Assembly: GCA_021740785.1 (NCBI GenBank)
Contig: JAIOZI010000001.1
Location: 1-64,000, forward strand
DNA length: 64,000 nucleotides
Direction: 5' to 3'
DNA from: Melioribacteraceae bacterium
Lineage (GTDB): Bacteria; Bacteroidota; Ignavibacteria; Ignavibacteriales; Melioribacteraceae
Every line of letters starts with the position of its first letter. The stretch's first letter is position 1. Below are positions 24,338-33,867 of this stretch, piece after piece. Both the position numbers and the translations under genes were made by a program. Under the pieces are notes generated by a model. That model made no database searches and had not been told where the DNA came from. It saw only the letters and a program-made list of their open reading frames with translations.

Positions 24338-25096
24338 GTGAGTAAAAAAGATACCAACCCCGCTGAAGAGACATTGAACGAAGAAAATGAAATGTCTTTT
24401 CTTGATCATCTCGAGGAATTAAGATGGCGTGTATTATACGCCTTGATAGGAATTGTAATAGGTACAGTTGTTTCATGGATTTTCATAGATTTTCTAGTAG
24501 ATCATATCCTCCTAATTCCTGCAAAAACTGCGAATATTAAACTCCAGAATCTAAAACCTTTCGGTCAATTATTTTTATTTATTCAGATAGCAATTATCGG
24601 CGGAGTTATTCTAAGCATACCGAATATATTTTTCCAGGTTTGGAAATTTATTTCTCCTGCATTACGCGAAAGTGAAAAGAAATACATCACGGTAATAGTT
24701 TTTTTCTCATCAGTATGTTTTTTAAGCGGGATTGTGTTCGCTTATTTTGTTATGCTTCCGCTCACTCTTAAATTTGCCGGTGAATTTGGTTCAGCCACTA
24801 TTGAAAACAATTTCGCAATTACAGAATACTTTTCGATTATTATAAGTGTGATGCTGGGCGCCGCATTAGTTTTTGAACTCCCAATGCTATCGTTCTTCCT
24901 TTCAAAATTAGGAATTATTACCCCGGCATTTATGAGAAAGTATAGGAGACATGCAATAATCGGGATATTGATTTTTGCTGCAATTCTAACACCGGGGACA
25001 GATCCTGTTGCCCAGGTACTGCTTGCAATCCCGTTGGTTTTCTTATACGAAATAAGTATATTCGTCTCAAAATATTCGATGAAGAAAAAGTCTTGA
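24338..25096 (+). CDS. tatC: Sec-independent protein translocase TatC
   Basis: The membrane receptor for twin-arginine signals. The 252-residue protein starts at GTG 24338. FLDHLEELRWRVLYALIG is the conserved first helix entry. Six membrane helices follow, with FQVWKFISPALRESEK and the Glu-containing VFELPMLSF. It could serve the Tat signals seen on ActB and the small protein of the Act cluster. tatA/B is not in this window. It overlaps the next gene by four bases. Confidence 0.97.
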   Translation: MSKKDTNPAEETLNEENEMSFLDHLEELRWRVLYALIGIVIGTVVSWIFIDFLVDHILLIPAKTANIKLQNLKPFGQLFLFIQIAIIGGVILSIPNIFFQVWKFISPALRESEKKYITVIVFFSSVCFLSGIVFAYFVMLPLTLKFAGEFGSATIENNFAITEYFSIIISVMLGAALVFELPMLSFFLSKLGIITPAFMRKYRRHAIIGILIFAAILTPGTDPVAQVLLAIPLVFLYEISIFVSKYSMKKKS

Positions 25097-26331: not shown

Positions 26332-26901
26332 ATGAAGAAGAGTGCTCTAGATTATATTCTTAAAGTTCGCCTTCCTATTACACTTTTCGTAATAGCTTTA
26401 ACATTTGTAATTACCTTTTATGTCTCACGACAGGAAAGAGACAGTGTTGGTTATGCACCGATCCAACCAATTAATTATTCGCATAAACTTCATGCAGGGG
26501 ATATGGGAATTGACTGCGAATATTGTCATACCGGGGTATCTGAAGGACGTTATGCACTTGTACCTTCGGTAAATATTTGTATGAACTGTCACACAATTTC
26601 CAGGAAAGACAGACCCGAAATAATAAAGCTGACAAAATATTACGAATCAGGCGAGCCGGTTCCATGGAAGAGAATACATAAAGTTCCCGAATATGCTTAC
26701 TTTAATCACAGCGTGCATGTTAATACCGGGATTCAATGTGAAACATGTCATGGTAACATATCAAAAATGGAAGTCGTTTCCCAAGTTAGAAGTTTTACAA
26801 TGACTGCGTGTTTGGATTGCCATCGTGATCCTGAAAAACAATTGCCTTATCTAAAGAAAGTAAATAAGGGACCAGAAAATTGCGCAGCTTGTCATAGATA
26901 A
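26332..26901 (+). CDS. actA: Alternative complex III subunit ActA, pentaheme cytochrome c
   Basis: The 189-residue protein has one N-terminal membrane helix (about 13-31) and five CXXCH heme c sites at 62-66, 83-87, 136-140, 160-164 and 184-188. Five hemes on a short anchored protein heading an actB-actC run is the ActA signature. ActA passes electrons in the quinol:cytochrome c oxidoreductase on the periplasmic side. A GATATTT stretch separates an AGGA ribosome-binding site from the ATG. Confidence 0.95.
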   Translation: MKKSALDYILKVRLPITLFVIALTFVITFYVSRQERDSVGYAPIQPINYSHKLHAGDMGIDCEYCHTGVSEGRYALVPSVNICMNCHTISRKDRPEIIKLTKYYESGEPVPWKRIHKVPEYAYFNHSVHVNTGIQCETCHGNISKMEVVSQVRSFTMTACLDCHRDPEKQLPYLKKVNKGPENCAACHR

Positions 26902-26912
26902 GCGGAGACTAT

Positions 26913-27089
26913 ATGATTAATAAGAAAAATAACAGAAGAAAATTTTTACAAGTACTTACCGGAAGCGCTATTGGAATTATTGCGGTTAAAGCTCTGCCAT
27001 CAGGAATTTTTAACAGACCAAAAGTTCATAAAGGCAAATTTAATATTAAAATTCATTCCTCGGCAATTCCAAGAAATTCTAAGGTTTAG
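26913..27089 (+). CDS. Small twin-arginine signal protein in the Act cluster
   Basis: A 58-residue frame from ATG 26913 to TAG 27087-27089, between actA and actB, with GGAG as ribosome-binding site and four bases before actB. The N terminus NNRRKFLQVLTGS is a twin-arginine motif followed by a hydrophobic stretch (AIGIIAV). The remaining 25-30 residues are rich in Lys, His and Ile (VHKGKFNIKIHSSAIP) with no Cys. Spacing and signal argue that it is a real gene, perhaps a small accessory subunit or assembly factor of the complex. I know of no named family. Confidence 0.7.
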   Translation: MINKKNNRRKFLQVLTGSAIGIIAVKALPSGIFNRPKVHKGKFNIKIHSSAIPRNSKV

Positions 27090-27093
27090 ATAA

Positions 27094-30000
27094 ATGAAGA
27101 ACGGTGAAAATAAAAAAACGAATAATCCGGAGTTTTGGAAAAGCTTAAAAGAATACTACAACGATCCGGAAGTTTTAAAAGCAAAGGCAAATGAATTTGC
27201 GGATGGAGTTACCGATGATTTTGATCCTTCCGAAATGAGCAGGGTATCGAGAAGAAAATTTTTAGCTCTGCTCTCTGCTTCGGCAGCATTTACTGCAACT
27301 GCATGTTCTGATTACCGGGATAAAGGCGATGTTGTTCCTTATAATGTTAGACCTGAAGGTGTATTACCGGGTAAAGCTAATTATTATGCATCAACTTGCA
27401 GCGGCTGCAGTCAATCATGCGGAATATTAGTAAAGACACGGGAAGGCAGACCAATAAAAATTGACGGCAATTCTGATCATCCGGTAAATAAAGGAAAAAC
27501 ATGTGCAATAGGGCAGGCAAGCATCTTAAATCTATATGATCCGGAAAGATTACAACAGCCGATTATTGATAAGAGAAAATCTTCATGGAAGAAAGCAGAT
27601 ACTGAGATAATTTCTGCACTAAAAGAATCGATGGCAGAGAAAAAAGAAATTGCATTGATCACTCATCAAACCGATTCTCAAACGGAAAAGAAAGTACTTG
27701 ATGATTTTGTCGCCGCCTATCCCAACACAAAAATTTATACTTATGAATTATTTGATTCCGGCAACCGTTACGATGGCTGGAAGAAAGCTTATGGCGTAAC
27801 ACCGCTTCCTTCGATTATGTGGGATAAGGCAAATGTTATTCTATCTCTTGATGCGGACTTTTTAGGAAACGAGGGCAATTATATTGAGGCAATGCGTAAG
27901 TATTCAAGCAGGAGAGATGCTGTTAATAATGCTTCATTCAACAGGTTTTATATTGCTGAAGCAGGCTTAAGCTTAACAGGGATGAGCGCTGATTATCGGT
28001 TCCGATTGAGTCCGGATCTGCAGTTGGAATTTATACTTTCGCTGCTGAATGAAATAGTTTCAAATGATCCTGCGATGAGGACTAAATTAAACTCTGCCGC
28101 TTTCGATTTGATATTCAGAAACTCTTTAGAAAAATTTGCAGAAAAATCGGGACTCGATTACGGGAAGCTTGTTAATCTAGTAATAGATTTTAAGAATAAC
28201 GCCGGTAAATCTATTGTATATGCGGGGGATAAATTAAGTCCGGATGTACATTATGCTGTTAACTTATTCAATTATGTTCTCGGCAACAACAATTTGTATG
28301 ATTATAAATCTGTATTTACTAATCGCCTAGAATTAAGTGACAACAAGGATTTAAAGAATTTAGTTGAATCAATGAACAACGGCATGGTTGGTGCGGTAAT
28401 TCATTATGATACAAATCCTGTTTATCATTTTCCTCCGGAATTAGATTATGCCGCAGCATTGAAGAATGTTAAAACGAGTATTACATTATCCGAATTACCG
28501 AATGAATCAATTGCAGCAAGTTATTATGCGGTACCCATAAATCATTATCTCGAATCTTGGGGCGATTCAAATCCAAGAGTTGGAATTTATAGTTTAAAAC
28601 AGCCGGTGGTTGCGCCGATTTTCGGTACACGGCAAAAAGAATCGATTCTGCTAACATGGATTATCGGTAAAACAGAAGCATATTCAGAAGATATCTATCA
28701 CAGTTATCTTATGGAAAATTTCAAAGACTCAGTTTATGATAAGACCGATTCCGCAGCTACATTTAATCATTTTTGGAATACAGCATTACATGACGGGATA
28801 ATCTCAATTGATGAATCCGCCCGCCCTCCTGTTGATTTTGACATGGCTAATATAAATTTATTGAAACCAAGTACTGCTTCCGGAGGATTCACAGTAATTC
28901 TAAATAAAAATTATTATTTGGGTGACGGCAGATTTTCGAATAATGGCTGGCTTCAGGAAACACCACATCCCGTAACAAAGGTTGCGTGGGATAATTATGC
29001 TTCAATTGCACCTAATACGGCAAAAACACTTGGAGTTGAATTTGGTGATTTTGTACGAATTAAAGTCGATGAAAGAAATGTGGATTTACCTGTAGTTGTC
29101 CAGCCGGGTTTAATTGAGAATTTTGTATCCGTTGAATTGGGTTATGGACGTGAAAACTCGGGCGAGGTTGCAAATGGTGTTGGATTTAATGTGAATGTAC
29201 TGCTTCAGTTTAACGGAAAATCCAAATGGATTATTAATAATGCCGAGGTTGCGAAAACCGGTGAGTCATACGAATTAGTATCTACACAAGAACATCATGC
29301 GCTTGATGACGAGTCTGTGAAAGATTTTCATAAAATTCGCGGAATTATAAAAGAAGGCACTGTTTCTGAATACAAAAAAAATCCTGGATTTATTAAAGAG
29401 CACGATCATGAATTATTCGGAATTACACGCGGACATGAATACAATGATGTAAAATGGGCAATGTCAATTGATTTGAATAAATGTACAAGCTGCAGCGCCT
29501 GCATTACCGCATGTAATGTTGAAAATAATATCCCGGTTGTGGGAAAAGACCAAGTTGGCAGAGGAAGGGAAATGCATTGGATACGGTTGGATCGGTATTA
29601 TTCCGGTACGCCTGAAGAACCAAAAGTAAGTAATCAGCCAATGCTTTGCCAGCACTGTGATAATGCGCCCTGTGAGAATGTTTGTCCGGTTAATGCAACA
29701 AACCACAGCCCGGATGGTTTGAATCAAATGGTTTACAATCGTTGCGTAGGAACTAGGTATTGTGCAAATAACTGTCCGTATAAAGTGCGAAGGTTTAATT
29801 TTTACGATTTCCGTGATCATTTTGCAGATGCATATTATCAGAATGATTTAACTGATTTGACCAACAATCCGGAAGTAACGGTTAGATCGCGCGGAGTTAT
29901 GGAAAAATGTACTTTCTGCGTTCAGAGAATTATGGAAGCCAGATCCGAATCAATTAAAGATGGTAGAAAATTAAAAGGCAGTGATGTACAAACAGCCTGC

Positions 30001-30177
30001 CAGCAAGTTTGTCCTGCAGATGCAATTGTATTCGGTGATGTAAATGAAGAAGGTTCGGAAATTCAAAAGTATAGAGAACACGAACTTGGTTATCATGTAT
30101 TAGAAGAACTTTATGTAAAACCGAATGTAACCTATATTGCAAAATTAAGAAATACCCATTCTTCGGAGGATGTATAG
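27094..30177 (+). CDS. actB: Alternative complex III subunit ActB, iron-sulfur molybdopterin-family protein
   Basis: 1027 residues, a fusion of a molybdopterin-oxidoreductase-like half and an iron-sulfur half, as usual for ActB. The N terminus has [12 protein letters not shown] and a Tat signal ([11 protein letters not shown], arginines 53-54). Cys 102, 105, 109 and 137 form a cluster site at the start of the first half, which in known ActB carries no molybdenum cofactor. From residue 797, four ferredoxin-type Cys groups follow ([47 protein letters not shown] with CQQVCP). It faces the periplasm and overlaps actC by one base. Confidence 0.95.
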
Positions 30178-31544
30178 TGAGTGGTCTTGATTATACACAA
30201 GAAATTTCGGTTGTAGAAGGTCAACCGTCATTACGTGAGATTGAAGATTTAATATCAAAACCGTTAGACAGCAAGCCGGATAAAAAATATTACATTGCAC
30301 TGGCAATTACAATGACCATGCTGGGAATCGGTGTAATTGCCCTTGGCTTATCTTTTTATTATGGTACCGGTCTTTGGGGAAATAATAACCCGGTTGGATG
30401 GGGATTCCCGATTGTCAACTTTGTTTTTTGGGTTGGTATTGGTCATGCTGGTACTCTTATTTCAGCTATCTTATTTTTATTCAGACAAAAATGGAGAAAT
30501 GGTATTGCCCGTTTTGCCGAGGGTATGACAATTTTTGCTGTAATGACAGCAGGAATTTTTCCCTTAATTCATGTCGGAAGACCTTGGCTTGCCGGATATT
30601 TAATCCCGTATCCTAATCAACATTCTCTCTGGGTTAATTTTACATCACCATTGCTCTGGGATGTTTTTGCTGTAAGTACATATTTAACTGTCTCATTTAT
30701 TTTTTGGTATGTTGGACTAATCCCGGATTTTGCAACTCTTCGAGACCGAACAACTAACAAACTTAAAAAAATCATCTATTCTACTTTTAGTTTGGGCTGG
30801 AGGCATTCAAACCGTCACTGGCAGCATTATGAAATGGTTTACTTAATACTTGCCGGTTTTGCCACGCCGCTGGTATTATCCGTTCACACAATTGTAAGTT
30901 TCGATTTTGCAGTATCAATTTTACCCGGATGGCATACAACAATTTTCCCTCCGTATTTTGTGGCTGGGGCAGTATTCTCCGGATTTGCAATGGTGCAAAA
31001 TGTCTTGATCTTCATCAGGAAAATATTCAATTATGAACATATTATAACCGTCGATACTCTCGAAAAGATGAATAAAATAATTTTGCTAACGGGCAGTATG
31101 GTTGGTTATGCTTATGCTATGGAATTTTTTATTGCATGGTACAGCGGTGTTCAACCGGAACAATTTACATTTATAAACAGAGCATTCGGACCATACACTT
31201 GGGCTTACTGGATTATGGTTTCGTGTAATGTGATATTCCCTCAGCTATTCTGGTTTAAGAAAATCCGAACGACTATTCCAGTAATGTTTGTTATCGGCGT
31301 TCTTGTAAACGTTGGAATGTGGTTTGAAAGATTTGTAATTACTGTCACTTCTCTGTCAAGAGATTATCTGCCTTCAAGCTGGGCTTATTATGCTCCGACT
31401 CTAACAGATGCCGGAATATTAATCGGCAGTTTCGGTCTATTTTTCACTTTACTTTTATTATTCACAAAAACATTACCTGTTGTATCAATTGCCGAAGTTA
31501 AAGCAGTTGTCAAAGGTTCTCAACCATCTCATGGGGATCATTAA
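30177..31544 (+). CDS. actC: Alternative complex III subunit ActC, NrfD/PsrC-type membrane protein
   Basis: 455 residues with about ten membrane helices of the NrfD/PsrC family. This subunit would hold the quinol-binding site next to ActB. Typical stretches are [52 protein letters not shown] and [13 protein letters not shown]. It starts at GTG 30177, overlapping the last base of the actB stop (TAGTG), so translation is likely coupled. Confidence 0.95.
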
Positions 31545-31546
31545 TA

Positions 31547-32686
31547 ATGAGTGATAAAGTTTTATTTTCTTACACAGGAATTTTTGATAAAGTTGATGAT
31601 ATTATACATGCTGCGGAAAAGGTTGCAGATGCAGGCTACACTAAATATGATGTAAATACGCCTTACCCGGTACATGGAATGGACGGCGCAATGAAGTTGA
31701 AACCGTCCAAGCTTGGATATGCCGCACTTGTTTTTGGGCTCTCCGGTCTTCTTGCCGCTTTGTTAACTATGTATTGGATGGTGGTTGCTGATTATCCCAT
31801 TGTTATAGGCGGTAAACCGTTTTTTGCTTTCCCGGCATTTGTCCCGATTATTTTTGAAGTAACTGTACTTGCAGCATCAATCGGAACTGTTATGACGATG
31901 TTATTTCTTTTCTTCAAATTCCCGAATAATAAGCATCCTCTGCATGATACCGATTATATGAAACATGTTTCCAGTGATAAATACGGTATTTCAATTCAAG
32001 CCGATGATCCGGCGTTTAATGAAAATGAAGTAAAATCATTTCTTGAAAGTATCGGTGCTCAAGAAATTACCCCAATTTATTTTGAAGAAAATGAATATGG
32101 ATATTCTGCCAAGATATTCGAACCCAAATTTATCGGGTTCTTAATTATTACCGCGTTTCTTGTTTCCGGTGCAACATATTTCTCATTAAATAAATTAATG
32201 TTTATGACCCCATTTAACTGGATGATGGAACAGGGGAAAGCCGTACCTCAGGAATACAACGAAATATTTGCAAATGCTAGATCGATGCAGCAGCCTGTTA
32301 AAGGCACAATATCAAGAGGAAATCTGCCTTATGAATTTAAAGGTAAACCGGAAGAGGCTGAAAGAGTTTTGTTAAATCCGCTGCAATTAAATGAAAAGAA
32401 TCTTACGATGGGAAAAGCAAACTTTAACATTTACTGCAGTCCGTGTCATGGTTATTTCGGTGAAGGCGACAGCCGTATGCGCGGTCAATTTCCTAACCCG
32501 CCAAGTCTTCATTCTGAAAAAGCTAGAAATTGGAGCGACGGTAGAATATACCATATTATTTCGGATGGTCAGAATATAATGCCTTCTTATTCATCACAAT
32601 TAACCAGGCAGGAAAGATGGGCAACCGTACTATATATTCGAGCATTACAACGTTCTTTAAATGCCAAGGAGTCTGACTTAAAATGA
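31547..32686 (+). CDS. ActD-ActE fusion: DUF3341 membrane domain plus monoheme cytochrome c
   Basis: 379 residues join two subunits that are usually separate. Residues 1-about 180 are ActD (DUF3341): LFSYTGIFDKVDDIIHAAEK, TPYPVHGMD, and two membrane helices (about 57-80 and 98-123). From about 190 there is a third helix (195-215) and then an ActE-like monoheme cytochrome c with CSPCH at 297-301 and a likely Met ligand in QNIMPSYSSQL. No stop or start signal interrupts the join. It overlaps actF by four bases. ActD is structural in known complexes; ActE carries electrons onward. Confidence 0.9.
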   Translation: MSDKVLFSYTGIFDKVDDIIHAAEKVADAGYTKYDVNTPYPVHGMDGAMKLKPSKLGYAALVFGLSGLLAALLTMYWMVVADYPIVIGGKPFFAFPAFVPIIFEVTVLAASIGTVMTMLFLFFKFPNNKHPLHDTDYMKHVSSDKYGISIQADDPAFNENEVKSFLESIGAQEITPIYFEENEYGYSAKIFEPKFIGFLIITAFLVSGATYFSLNKLMFMTPFNWMMEQGKAVPQEYNEIFANARSMQQPVKGTISRGNLPYEFKGKPEEAERVLLNPLQLNEKNLTMGKANFNIYCSPCHGYFGEGDSRMRGQFPNPPSLHSEKARNWSDGRIYHIISDGQNIMPSYSSQLTRQERWATVLYIRALQRSLNAKESDLK

Positions 32687-33867
32687 GTTCAACATCAATA
32701 GAATACACAAAGAAAGATTTACCCTCTAATGTTACAAAACTTGGTGCAGCGCTGGTTGTAATAGGATTAGTTATAACTATCTTAGCATATTTTATTGATC
32801 ACACAAGAAGCGCTTTCAATAATTTGATTTTGTTAATGTTCCTAAGCAGCGTGGGTGTTGGATCGCTATTTTTAGTTGTAATCGAATATCTCGGGGGAGC
32901 CGTTTGGAGTGTCCCGTTTAGAAGAATCAGTGAATTTTTCGGAGCGGTATTACTTATTCTTCCTATTATCGCAATACCGGTGTATTTTAATTTACATGAT
33001 CTATTCCATTGGACGCATATTGAAAGTGTAGCAGGTGATAAGCTTCTCGAAGAAAAATCACCTTATTTGAATGAGATGTTTTTTACAATACGGGTATTAG
33101 CTTACTTTTTGATCTGGATAATGTTTTATCTAGTGATAACTAGAAACTCTAGAAAACAGGATGTTTCCGGTGATCAAAAATTAACCAAAAAGAATATTCG
33201 GTATTCGGCAATTTTCATACCTGTATTCGCTATTACTCTTACCTTTGCCTCTATTGATTGGCTTATGAGTTTGGAACCACATTGGTTTTCAACTATTTTC
33301 GGTATTTATTATTTCTCAGGTACCGTATTAACAGCCCTCGCAATCGCTACTTTTGCGATTGTATCATTAAACGAAAAAGGTCTTTTGGTAAAAGGCATTA
33401 CAAAAGATCACTATTACAGTTTGGGTGCTTTGATGTTTGCGTTTACCAACTTTTGGGCATACATTGCTTTCAGTCAATATTTATTGATTTGGTATGCAAA
33501 CCTTCCTGAAGAAACATTTTGGTTTTTAGCTAGATGGGAAGGGAGCTGGATGTATTTTTCAATCGGGTTGATAATTGTTAGATTTTTAGTTCCATATATT
33601 GGATTACTTTCCCAGCCATCGAAAATGAATCCGAAGCGGCTTAAAATAATGTCAGTCTGGATTTTATTCGCCCATATTTATGATCTTTACTGGTTAATCA
33701 TGCCTACATATAGTAAGGATGGAATTGTTTTCGGCTGGATTGAATTTGGTTTTCCGTTATTAGCCGGGGGAATTTTAATCTTAGTATTTAACATGAGAGC
33801 AAAAAATCAGAATTTGGTTCCTATTGGTGATCCCAAACTGAAACGGGGATTGAATTTTAGACTTTAA
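32683..33867 (+). CDS. actF: Alternative complex III subunit ActF, membrane protein
   Basis: 394 residues with about ten membrane helices and no heme motif, related in overall plan to ActC. Typical stretches are FNNLILLMFLSSVGVGSLF, EYLGGAVWSVPFRRISEFFG, FASIDWLMSLEPHWFSTIFG and YYFSGTVLTALAI. The ATG start overlaps the actDE stop, and the next cytochrome gene begins seven bases after its stop. Confidence 0.93.
   Translation: MSSTSIEYTKKDLPSNVTKLGAALVVIGLVITILAYFIDHTRSAFNNLILLMFLSSVGVGSLFLVVIEYLGGAVWSVPFRRISEFFGAVLLILPIIAIPVYFNLHDLFHWTHIESVAGDKLLEEKSPYLNEMFFTIRVLAYFLIWIMFYLVITRNSRKQDVSGDQKLTKKNIRYSAIFIPVFAITLTFASIDWLMSLEPHWFSTIFGIYYFSGTVLTALAIATFAIVSLNEKGLLVKGITKDHYYSLGALMFAFTNFWAYIAFSQYLLIWYANLPEETFWFLARWEGSWMYFSIGLIIVRFLVPYIGLLSQPSKMNPKRLKIMSVWILFAHIYDLYWLIMPTYSKDGIVFGWIEFGFPLLAGGILILVFNMRAKNQNLVPIGDPKLKRGLNFRL

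What the first reader, a model, noticed from the sequence alone, without database searches (positions are those of the whole stretch)
26902..27093. 58-residue twin-arginine protein between actA and actB
A short frame fills the gap between two alternative complex III genes, with its own ribosome-binding site, an NRRKFLQ Tat motif and a Lys/His-rich tail of about 28 residues without Cys. ActB has its own Tat signal, so this is not a broken start of actB. It may be an unnamed small subunit or a piece that helps ActB fold or be exported.
Basis: partly seen in the sequence, partly recalled or inferred. Interest (0 to 1): 0.6.

Follow-up and report, generated by a model that had tools for sequence, protein, structure and literature searches.

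The report
Overlooked small subunit of alternative complex III
A 58-residue membrane-anchored protein, encoded between two genes of a bacterial respiratory enzyme (alternative complex III) and absent from Pfam and NCBIfam, is conserved in at least three phyla and occurs only where two other subunits of that enzyme are fused, so it is probably an unrecognised small subunit of that version of the enzyme.

Summary
The frame at 26913-27089 (58 aa) lies between actA and actB with an RBS. It is not chance: 49 of 50 ActA-ActB gaps in the order hold the same short frame, and across the class 124 of 141 Ignavibacteria-type ActB genes have a profile match just upstream. It evolves under purifying selection (17/17 pairs, pN/pS 0.06-0.62), and invariant residues use many synonymous codons. 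It has no match in Pfam, NCBIfam or the PDB.

The "twin-arginine" label is only half right. The motif is R-x-x-F-F; the second Arg is Arg in 44, Lys in 45 and neither in 9 of 98 sequences. The most distinctive conserved feature is a basic C-terminal tail, [HN]-P-x-[AS]-V-x-R, behind one membrane helix.

New finding: the gene occurs only where actD and actE are fused (33 fused loci with it, 7 without; 0 of 53 unfused), including a second ActB clade in Elusimicrobiota and loci in Riflebacteria. Three Elusimicrobiota genomes with two ACIII operons carry it only in the fused one.

Best reading: a single-span supernumerary subunit of ActDE-type ACIII whose periplasmic tail packs on ActA/ActB/ActDE. 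A more specific idea, that it replaces the lost N-terminal arm of ActE, fits the genetics but has no significant sequence support. Docking and function are inferred.

The parts
26913..27089 (+). small ORF, 58 aa, single-span protein with basic periplasmic tail (candidate supernumerary ACIII subunit)
26904..26907 (+). ribosome-binding site GGAG, 5 nt before the ATG
   Evidence: sequence
26934..26948 (+). signal-anchor motif R8-R-K-F-L (family: R-[RK]-x-F-[FL])
26934..26993 (+). predicted membrane helix, residues 8-27
   Evidence: AlphaFold2 helix 8-27, pLDDT above 90; mean hydropathy 1.60 over 19 residues
27048..27074 (+). conserved C-terminal motif, here KIHSSAIPR (family: [IV]-[HN]-P-x-[AS]-V-x-R)
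26332..26901 (+). actA, multiheme cytochrome c
27094..30177 (+). actB, molybdopterin-like plus Fe-S subunit with its own Tat-type signal
   Evidence: PDB relatives 6lod, 6f0k, 8k9e, 6btm
30177..31544 (+). actC, NrfD-like membrane subunit
31547..32686 (+). actDE fusion (ActD domain PF11821 plus cytochrome c domain), the feature with which the small ORF co-occurs
32683..33867 (+). probable actF (no Pfam/NCBIfam hit; by position and hydrophobicity)

Best explanation
The ORF encodes a small single-span supernumerary subunit of the ActDE-fused form of alternative complex III. The N-terminal R-[RK]-x-F-F segment and hydrophobic helix act as an uncleaved signal-anchor (inserted by Tat or by Sec/YidC) with the N-terminus in the cytoplasm. 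The roughly 28-residue basic tail lies in the periplasm, and its conserved [HN]-P-x-[AS]-V-x-R motif packs on the ActA/ActB/ActDE electron-transfer module, fastening the periplasmic module to the membrane where the free, membrane-anchored N-terminus of a separate ActE would otherwise lie. Shown: conservation, selection, operon position, a single membrane helix by prediction, co-occurrence with ACIII and specifically with the ActD-ActE fusion. Inferred: topology, presence in the complex, docking site and stabilising role.
For: 49/50 order-level gaps hold it; 124/141 class-level ActB places have an adjacent match, most of the other 17 being contig ends or low-scoring frames that are present by eye, and 5 real absences. 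Of 135 profile hits at E about 1e-5 or better, 124 are adjacent to a listed ActB and only two belong to long unrelated proteins. G028 and G281 lack both ActB and the ORF. Purifying selection in all pairs, synonymous codon diversity. Stop of the ORF and start of actB overlap or lie within 30 nt in 92 of 93 loci. ActD-ActE fusion: 33 fused loci with the ORF, 7 without; 0 of 53 unfused loci with it. Within-genome contrasts: G714, G728 and G700 each carry one fused operon with and one unfused operon without. [quoted passage not shown] marinus structure (PMC5928083).
Against: No peptide, purification or structure shows the protein in a complex. Some fused operons lack it (G298, G240, G215, G054, G288, L177, L184), so it is dispensable at least there. 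The fusion and the ORF may be linked by descent only: the ActB tree gives two fused clades, but one clade is not firmly rejected (AU p 0.056) and independent pairs number only 1-2. AlphaFold2 gave no docking (shallow alignment).
Confidence: 0.6

Rival explanations
1. An assembly or export factor rather than a stable subunit: the membrane-anchored tail transiently binds folded ActB (or the haem-loaded ActA/ActDE) and helps it dock, then leaves.
For: Gene placed directly before actB with overlapping stop/start; Tat-like signal; comparable short Tat proteins sit in formate dehydrogenase regions (TIGR02811; two members match weakly, E 0.0034).
Against: ActB is made without it in all 53 unfused operons; presence follows the ActDE fusion, not ActB features; Tat motif only half conserved.
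Confidence: 0.22
2. The ORF is the detached N-terminal arm of ActE: when the cytochrome domain of ActE was joined to ActD, its own membrane anchor and first stretch were replaced by a third helix, and a separate gene supplies the anchor plus strand that runs along ActB.
For: Unfused ActE often has an anchor plus [KE]PPIQ[IV]R[YH]DM before the shared arm; fused ActDE lacks that stretch and goes from helix 3 straight into the arm. Small-ORF tails (HPxAVKRN, PPHSVKRD) look alike by eye.
Against: The tail/arm similarity is not significant (813/1000 column-permuted profiles as good for Ignavibacteria tails, 177/1000 for the Elusimicrobia/Riflebacteria set; hhalign aligns only the helix, probability 11%). 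Some unfused ActE also lack the stretch (L189) without needing the gene.
Confidence: 0.12
3. A leader ORF whose translation only couples actA to actB (regulatory), its protein having no function.
For: Overlap or near-contact with the actB start in nearly all loci.
Against: pN/pS well below 1 and residue-level conservation with varied codons over three phyla; a leader needs no [HN]PxAVxR tail.
Confidence: 0.04
4. A chance frame or a decayed piece of actB.
For: Short, no database match.
Against: All of the conservation evidence above; actB intact with its own start and N-terminal extension.
Confidence: 0.01

Closest known systems
ActG and ActH of Rhodothermus marinus ACIII (PMC5928083)
   Same: Extra, non-universal ACIII subunits; ActG is predicted to have one TMH and its gene is missing from some clusters; [quoted passage not shown]
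   Different: ActH is a helical-bundle protein reported without homologues outside R. marinus relatives, and ActG was reported absent from M. roseus (PMC3534657). No PDB chain, including the ACIII entries, matches the small-ORF profile.
TIGR02811 'formate dehydrogenase region TAT target' small proteins
   Same: Short protein with a Tat-like signal, encoded beside a molybdoenzyme-type gene.
   Different: Only 2 of 44 members match, E 0.0034 at best, as expected from a shared signal; other complex, and the C-terminal motif does not place it there.
Single-TM supernumerary subunits of other respiratory complexes (CydX, CcoQ, KdpF, Pet small subunits; from general knowledge)
   Same: Size, one helix, operon position, complex-specific occurrence.
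   Different: No sequence relation tested or found; here with a conserved basic C-terminal motif and linked to a subunit fusion.
N-terminal anchored arm of unfused ActE
   Same: Membrane anchor followed by an extended Pro-containing stretch at the ActB/membrane border; present where the small ORF is absent.
   Different: No significant sequence similarity.

Membership tests
Alternative complex III operon component | Gene lies inside the act cluster, next to actA/actB, in relatives | tested here: met
Alternative complex III operon component | Occurs with and is lost with ACIII | tested here: met
   (G028, G281 lack both; only two of 135 hits belong to unrelated long proteins)
Alternative complex III operon component | Protein physically part of the complex | not testable with these tools
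   needs purification, mass spectrometry or a map
ActG / ActH / other solved ACIII subunits | Sequence match to an ACIII chain in the PDB | tested here: not met
   (no ACIII chain at E up to 10); fold search empty
Tat substrates | Twin arginine followed by x-F-L and a hydrophobic region | tested here: inconclusive
   met by the window protein; family has RR 44, RK 45, neither 9 of 98. ActB in the same loci is RR 85, RK 10, so RK occurs in a likely Tat substrate here
TIGR02811 formate_TAT | Score above the NCBIfam model cut-off | tested here: not met
   window protein: no match; 2 of 44 members at E 0.0034 or weaker
Detached ActE N-terminal arm | Sequence similarity of the tail to the ActE arm beyond chance | tested here: not met
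Detached ActE N-terminal arm | Present only where ActE has been fused to ActD | tested here: met
   33 fused loci with, 7 fused without, 0 of 53 unfused with

The most novel reading that the evidence does not exclude
The small gene is a subunit in trans that replaces the lost membrane-anchored N-terminal arm of ActE: a gene fusion at one end of a respiratory subunit (ActD-ActE) is compensated by a separate micro-subunit that restores the lost anchor/strand at the ActB-membrane border. This arose or spread with the fused ACIII type across at least three phyla.
Probability: 0.15. Interest if true: 0.75.

Novelty: new variant of a known kind. Interest (0 to 1): 0.58.

Why it matters
Alternative complex III replaces cytochrome bc1 in many bacteria, and its subunit list is still open (an unassigned periplasmic density remained in the R. 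marinus map). A conserved micro-subunit missed by annotation (M. roseus locus tags run straight from actA Mros0045 to actB Mros0044, PMC3534657) and tied to one architecture of the complex gives a concrete, testable candidate, and shows that ACIII comes in at least two structural types marked by the ActD-ActE fusion.

Tried and rejected
Pfam, NCBIfam and PDB profile searches, alone and with the family: no match above signal-peptide noise. The TatB_1 model (NF038009) matched 8 of 44 members at E down to 1.4e-4; not followed further and taken as low-complexity/helix noise. Foldseek of the model: no match. AlphaFold2 of a relative (L124, labelled M. roseus) in which ORF and ActB lie in one frame, read through the stop to test docking: tail pLDDT about 30, uninformative with 34 rows. 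Homology of the tail to the ActE arm: not significant (timed out). Deltaproteobacterial L167/L206 has a short frame of a similar kind (SVAR tail, no RR) but an unfused ActD and no counterpart in the other loci read from its phylum; left as ambiguous. AU test for one origin of the fused type: not decisive. The first ActB extraction for the tree missed many rows and was redone. The Chloroflexus ACIII structure paper (PMC11635291) is not held.

Full report
The observation. The window holds an alternative complex III (ACIII) operon: actA 26332-26901, the ORF 26913-27089, actB 27094-30177, actC 30177-31544, a fused actDE 31547-32686, probable actF 32683-33867, then a cytochrome c and oxidase genes. 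The ORF has an RBS (GGAG, 5 nt before the ATG) and sits 11 nt after actA and 4 nt before actB. ActB has its own Tat-variant signal (TIGR04519), so the ORF is not a broken actB start. There is a single copy in the genome.

It is a real gene. In 50 ACIII loci of the order (L002-L051), the ActA-ActB gap holds the same short frame in 49; only L050 lacks it (gap 40 nt). The aligned set of 44 has invariant R8 and F11 and nearly invariant R54. A profile from these (A1) was searched in 294 genomes of the class, and ActB separately in the same genomes. Of 141 Ignavibacteria-type ActB places, 124 have an A1 hit from 3 nt inside to 259 nt upstream. Of the other 17, five lie at contig ends or are fragments (three of these genomes have the ORF on another contig), seven have the frame by eye below the search threshold (L083 degenerate, L086-L091), and five lack it (G298, G240, G215, G054, G288). 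G028 and G281 lack both ActB and the ORF. Of the 135 hits, only two are the N-termini of long unrelated proteins.

Selection. In 17 close pairs pN/pS runs from 0.06 to 0.62, always below 1. At the invariant Arg, Pro, Ala and Val positions most or all synonymous codons occur, so the protein, not the DNA, is conserved. ORF stop and actB start overlap or lie within 30 nt in 92 of 93 loci, which suggests coupled translation.

Anatomy. AlphaFold2 with 72 relatives gives one helix, residues 8-27 (pLDDT above 90), and a coil tail. A signal-peptidase-like A-x-A site follows the helix in only 16 of 99 unique members, so the helix is probably an uncleaved anchor; mean tail net charge is +6.6. The tail ends in [IV]-[HN]-P-x-[AS]-V-x-R. 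Caution: the 99-sequence count used a tail filter ([AST][VI]x[RY]); the first 44 were collected without it and show the same motif. The 'twin-arginine' pair is RR in 44, RK in 45 and neither in 9 of 98 sequences. ActB in the same loci is RR in 85 and RK in 10, so RK does occur in a likely Tat substrate here, but Tat routing of the small protein is not established for the family.

Beyond the class. In the phylum no full-length match lies outside the class. Reading the gaps of named loci and of other phyla, however, turned up the same kind of frame in Elusimicrobiota (L165, L181, L208, L216, L217; tails such as PPHSVKRDG) and in Riflebacteria (L278, L279, L280; tails such as KIHPTAVSR), with a tail-only variant in L166. 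On an ActB tree the Elusimicrobiota loci with the ORF form a clade apart from the Ignavibacteria clade.

The link to the ActD-ActE fusion. Checking ActD downstream of ActB shows that every locus with the ORF has actD fused to a cytochrome domain (ActDE), while unfused ACIII lacks the ORF. My tally over loci where both could be read is 33 fused with, 7 fused without (plus one degenerate, L083, and one tail-only, L166), 0 unfused with and 53 unfused without (L167/L206 ambiguous). Three Elusimicrobiota genomes carry two ACIII operons, one fused with the ORF and one unfused without it: G714 (L216/L209), G728 (L217/L212), G700 (L208/L268). Riflebacteria repeat the pattern between genomes (G939, G940, G942 versus G938). 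Because related loci are not independent, this is strong as a pattern but rests on one or two origins: an AU test of a single fused clade gives p 0.056, and independent pairs number 1-2.

How it may work. In the R. [quoted passage not shown] In many unfused ActE the anchor is followed by a stretch such as EPPIQVRYDM and then the arm shared by all (Q..AQ...FFADG..MR.PV.GTVA); in ActDE a third membrane helix runs almost straight into that shared arm and the first stretch is missing. The small protein, an anchor plus a short basic Pro-containing tail, could fill the place left at the ActB-membrane border. I tested whether tail and stretch are similar in sequence: they are not beyond chance. The substitution idea therefore rests on genetics and architecture only. 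The broader reading, a single-span accessory subunit of ActDE-type ACIII, is what I commit to (0.6); a transient assembly factor is the main rival (0.22).

What is known. ActG (one predicted TMH, not universal) and ActH are the known extra ACIII subunits, and one periplasmic density stayed unassigned in R. marinus (PMC5928083). M. roseus was reported to lack actG, and its locus tags run from actA (Mros0045) directly to actB (Mros0044), so this ORF was not annotated (PMC3534657). MAGs labelled M. roseus (L124, L126, L145) carry it. No Pfam, NCBIfam or PDB entry covers it. I found no paper that mentions it in the open library, but subscription papers, including the Chloroflexus ACIII structure, could not be read.

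Verdict. Observation confirmed. The interpretation as a small subunit is supported as the best reading; the Tat emphasis is not. New here: the family definition (tail motif), its presence in at least three phyla, and its restriction to ActD-ActE fused ACIII.

Noticed in passing
24338-25096: A tatC gene lies two genes upstream of actA (glyA - tatC - polyprenyl synthase - actA). Identified by sequence features only; conservation of the neighbourhood was not tested.
   Followed up: no
L086, L087, L088, L090, L105, L110, L111, L118 (ActB N-termini): ActB itself has RK in place of RR in its Tat-type signal (SRKQFLAL, SRKKFLAL) in several families of the class, a natural case of a relaxed Tat motif in a large Fe-S protein (10 of 95 loci).
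   Followed up: partly
L209/L216, L212/L217, L208/L268: Three Elusimicrobiota genomes carry two ACIII operons of different types, one with fused ActDE and one without.
   Followed up: partly
L167/L206 (Deltaproteobacterium), ActA-ActB gap: A short one-helix frame with a PTKSVAR tail in an unfused ACIII operon that overlaps the actB start; no counterpart seen in other loci of its phylum. Could be independent or chance.
   Followed up: partly
L166/L205 (Riflebacteria), ActA-ActB gap: A frame ending VEAPPGSVRRR with no obvious membrane helix in a fused-type ACIII operon: tail motif without the anchor.
   Followed up: no
L199: A contig filed as Melioribacter roseus carries an ActB only 36% identical to the window's that groups far from Ignavibacteria on the tree; probably a mislabelled bin.
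   Followed up: no
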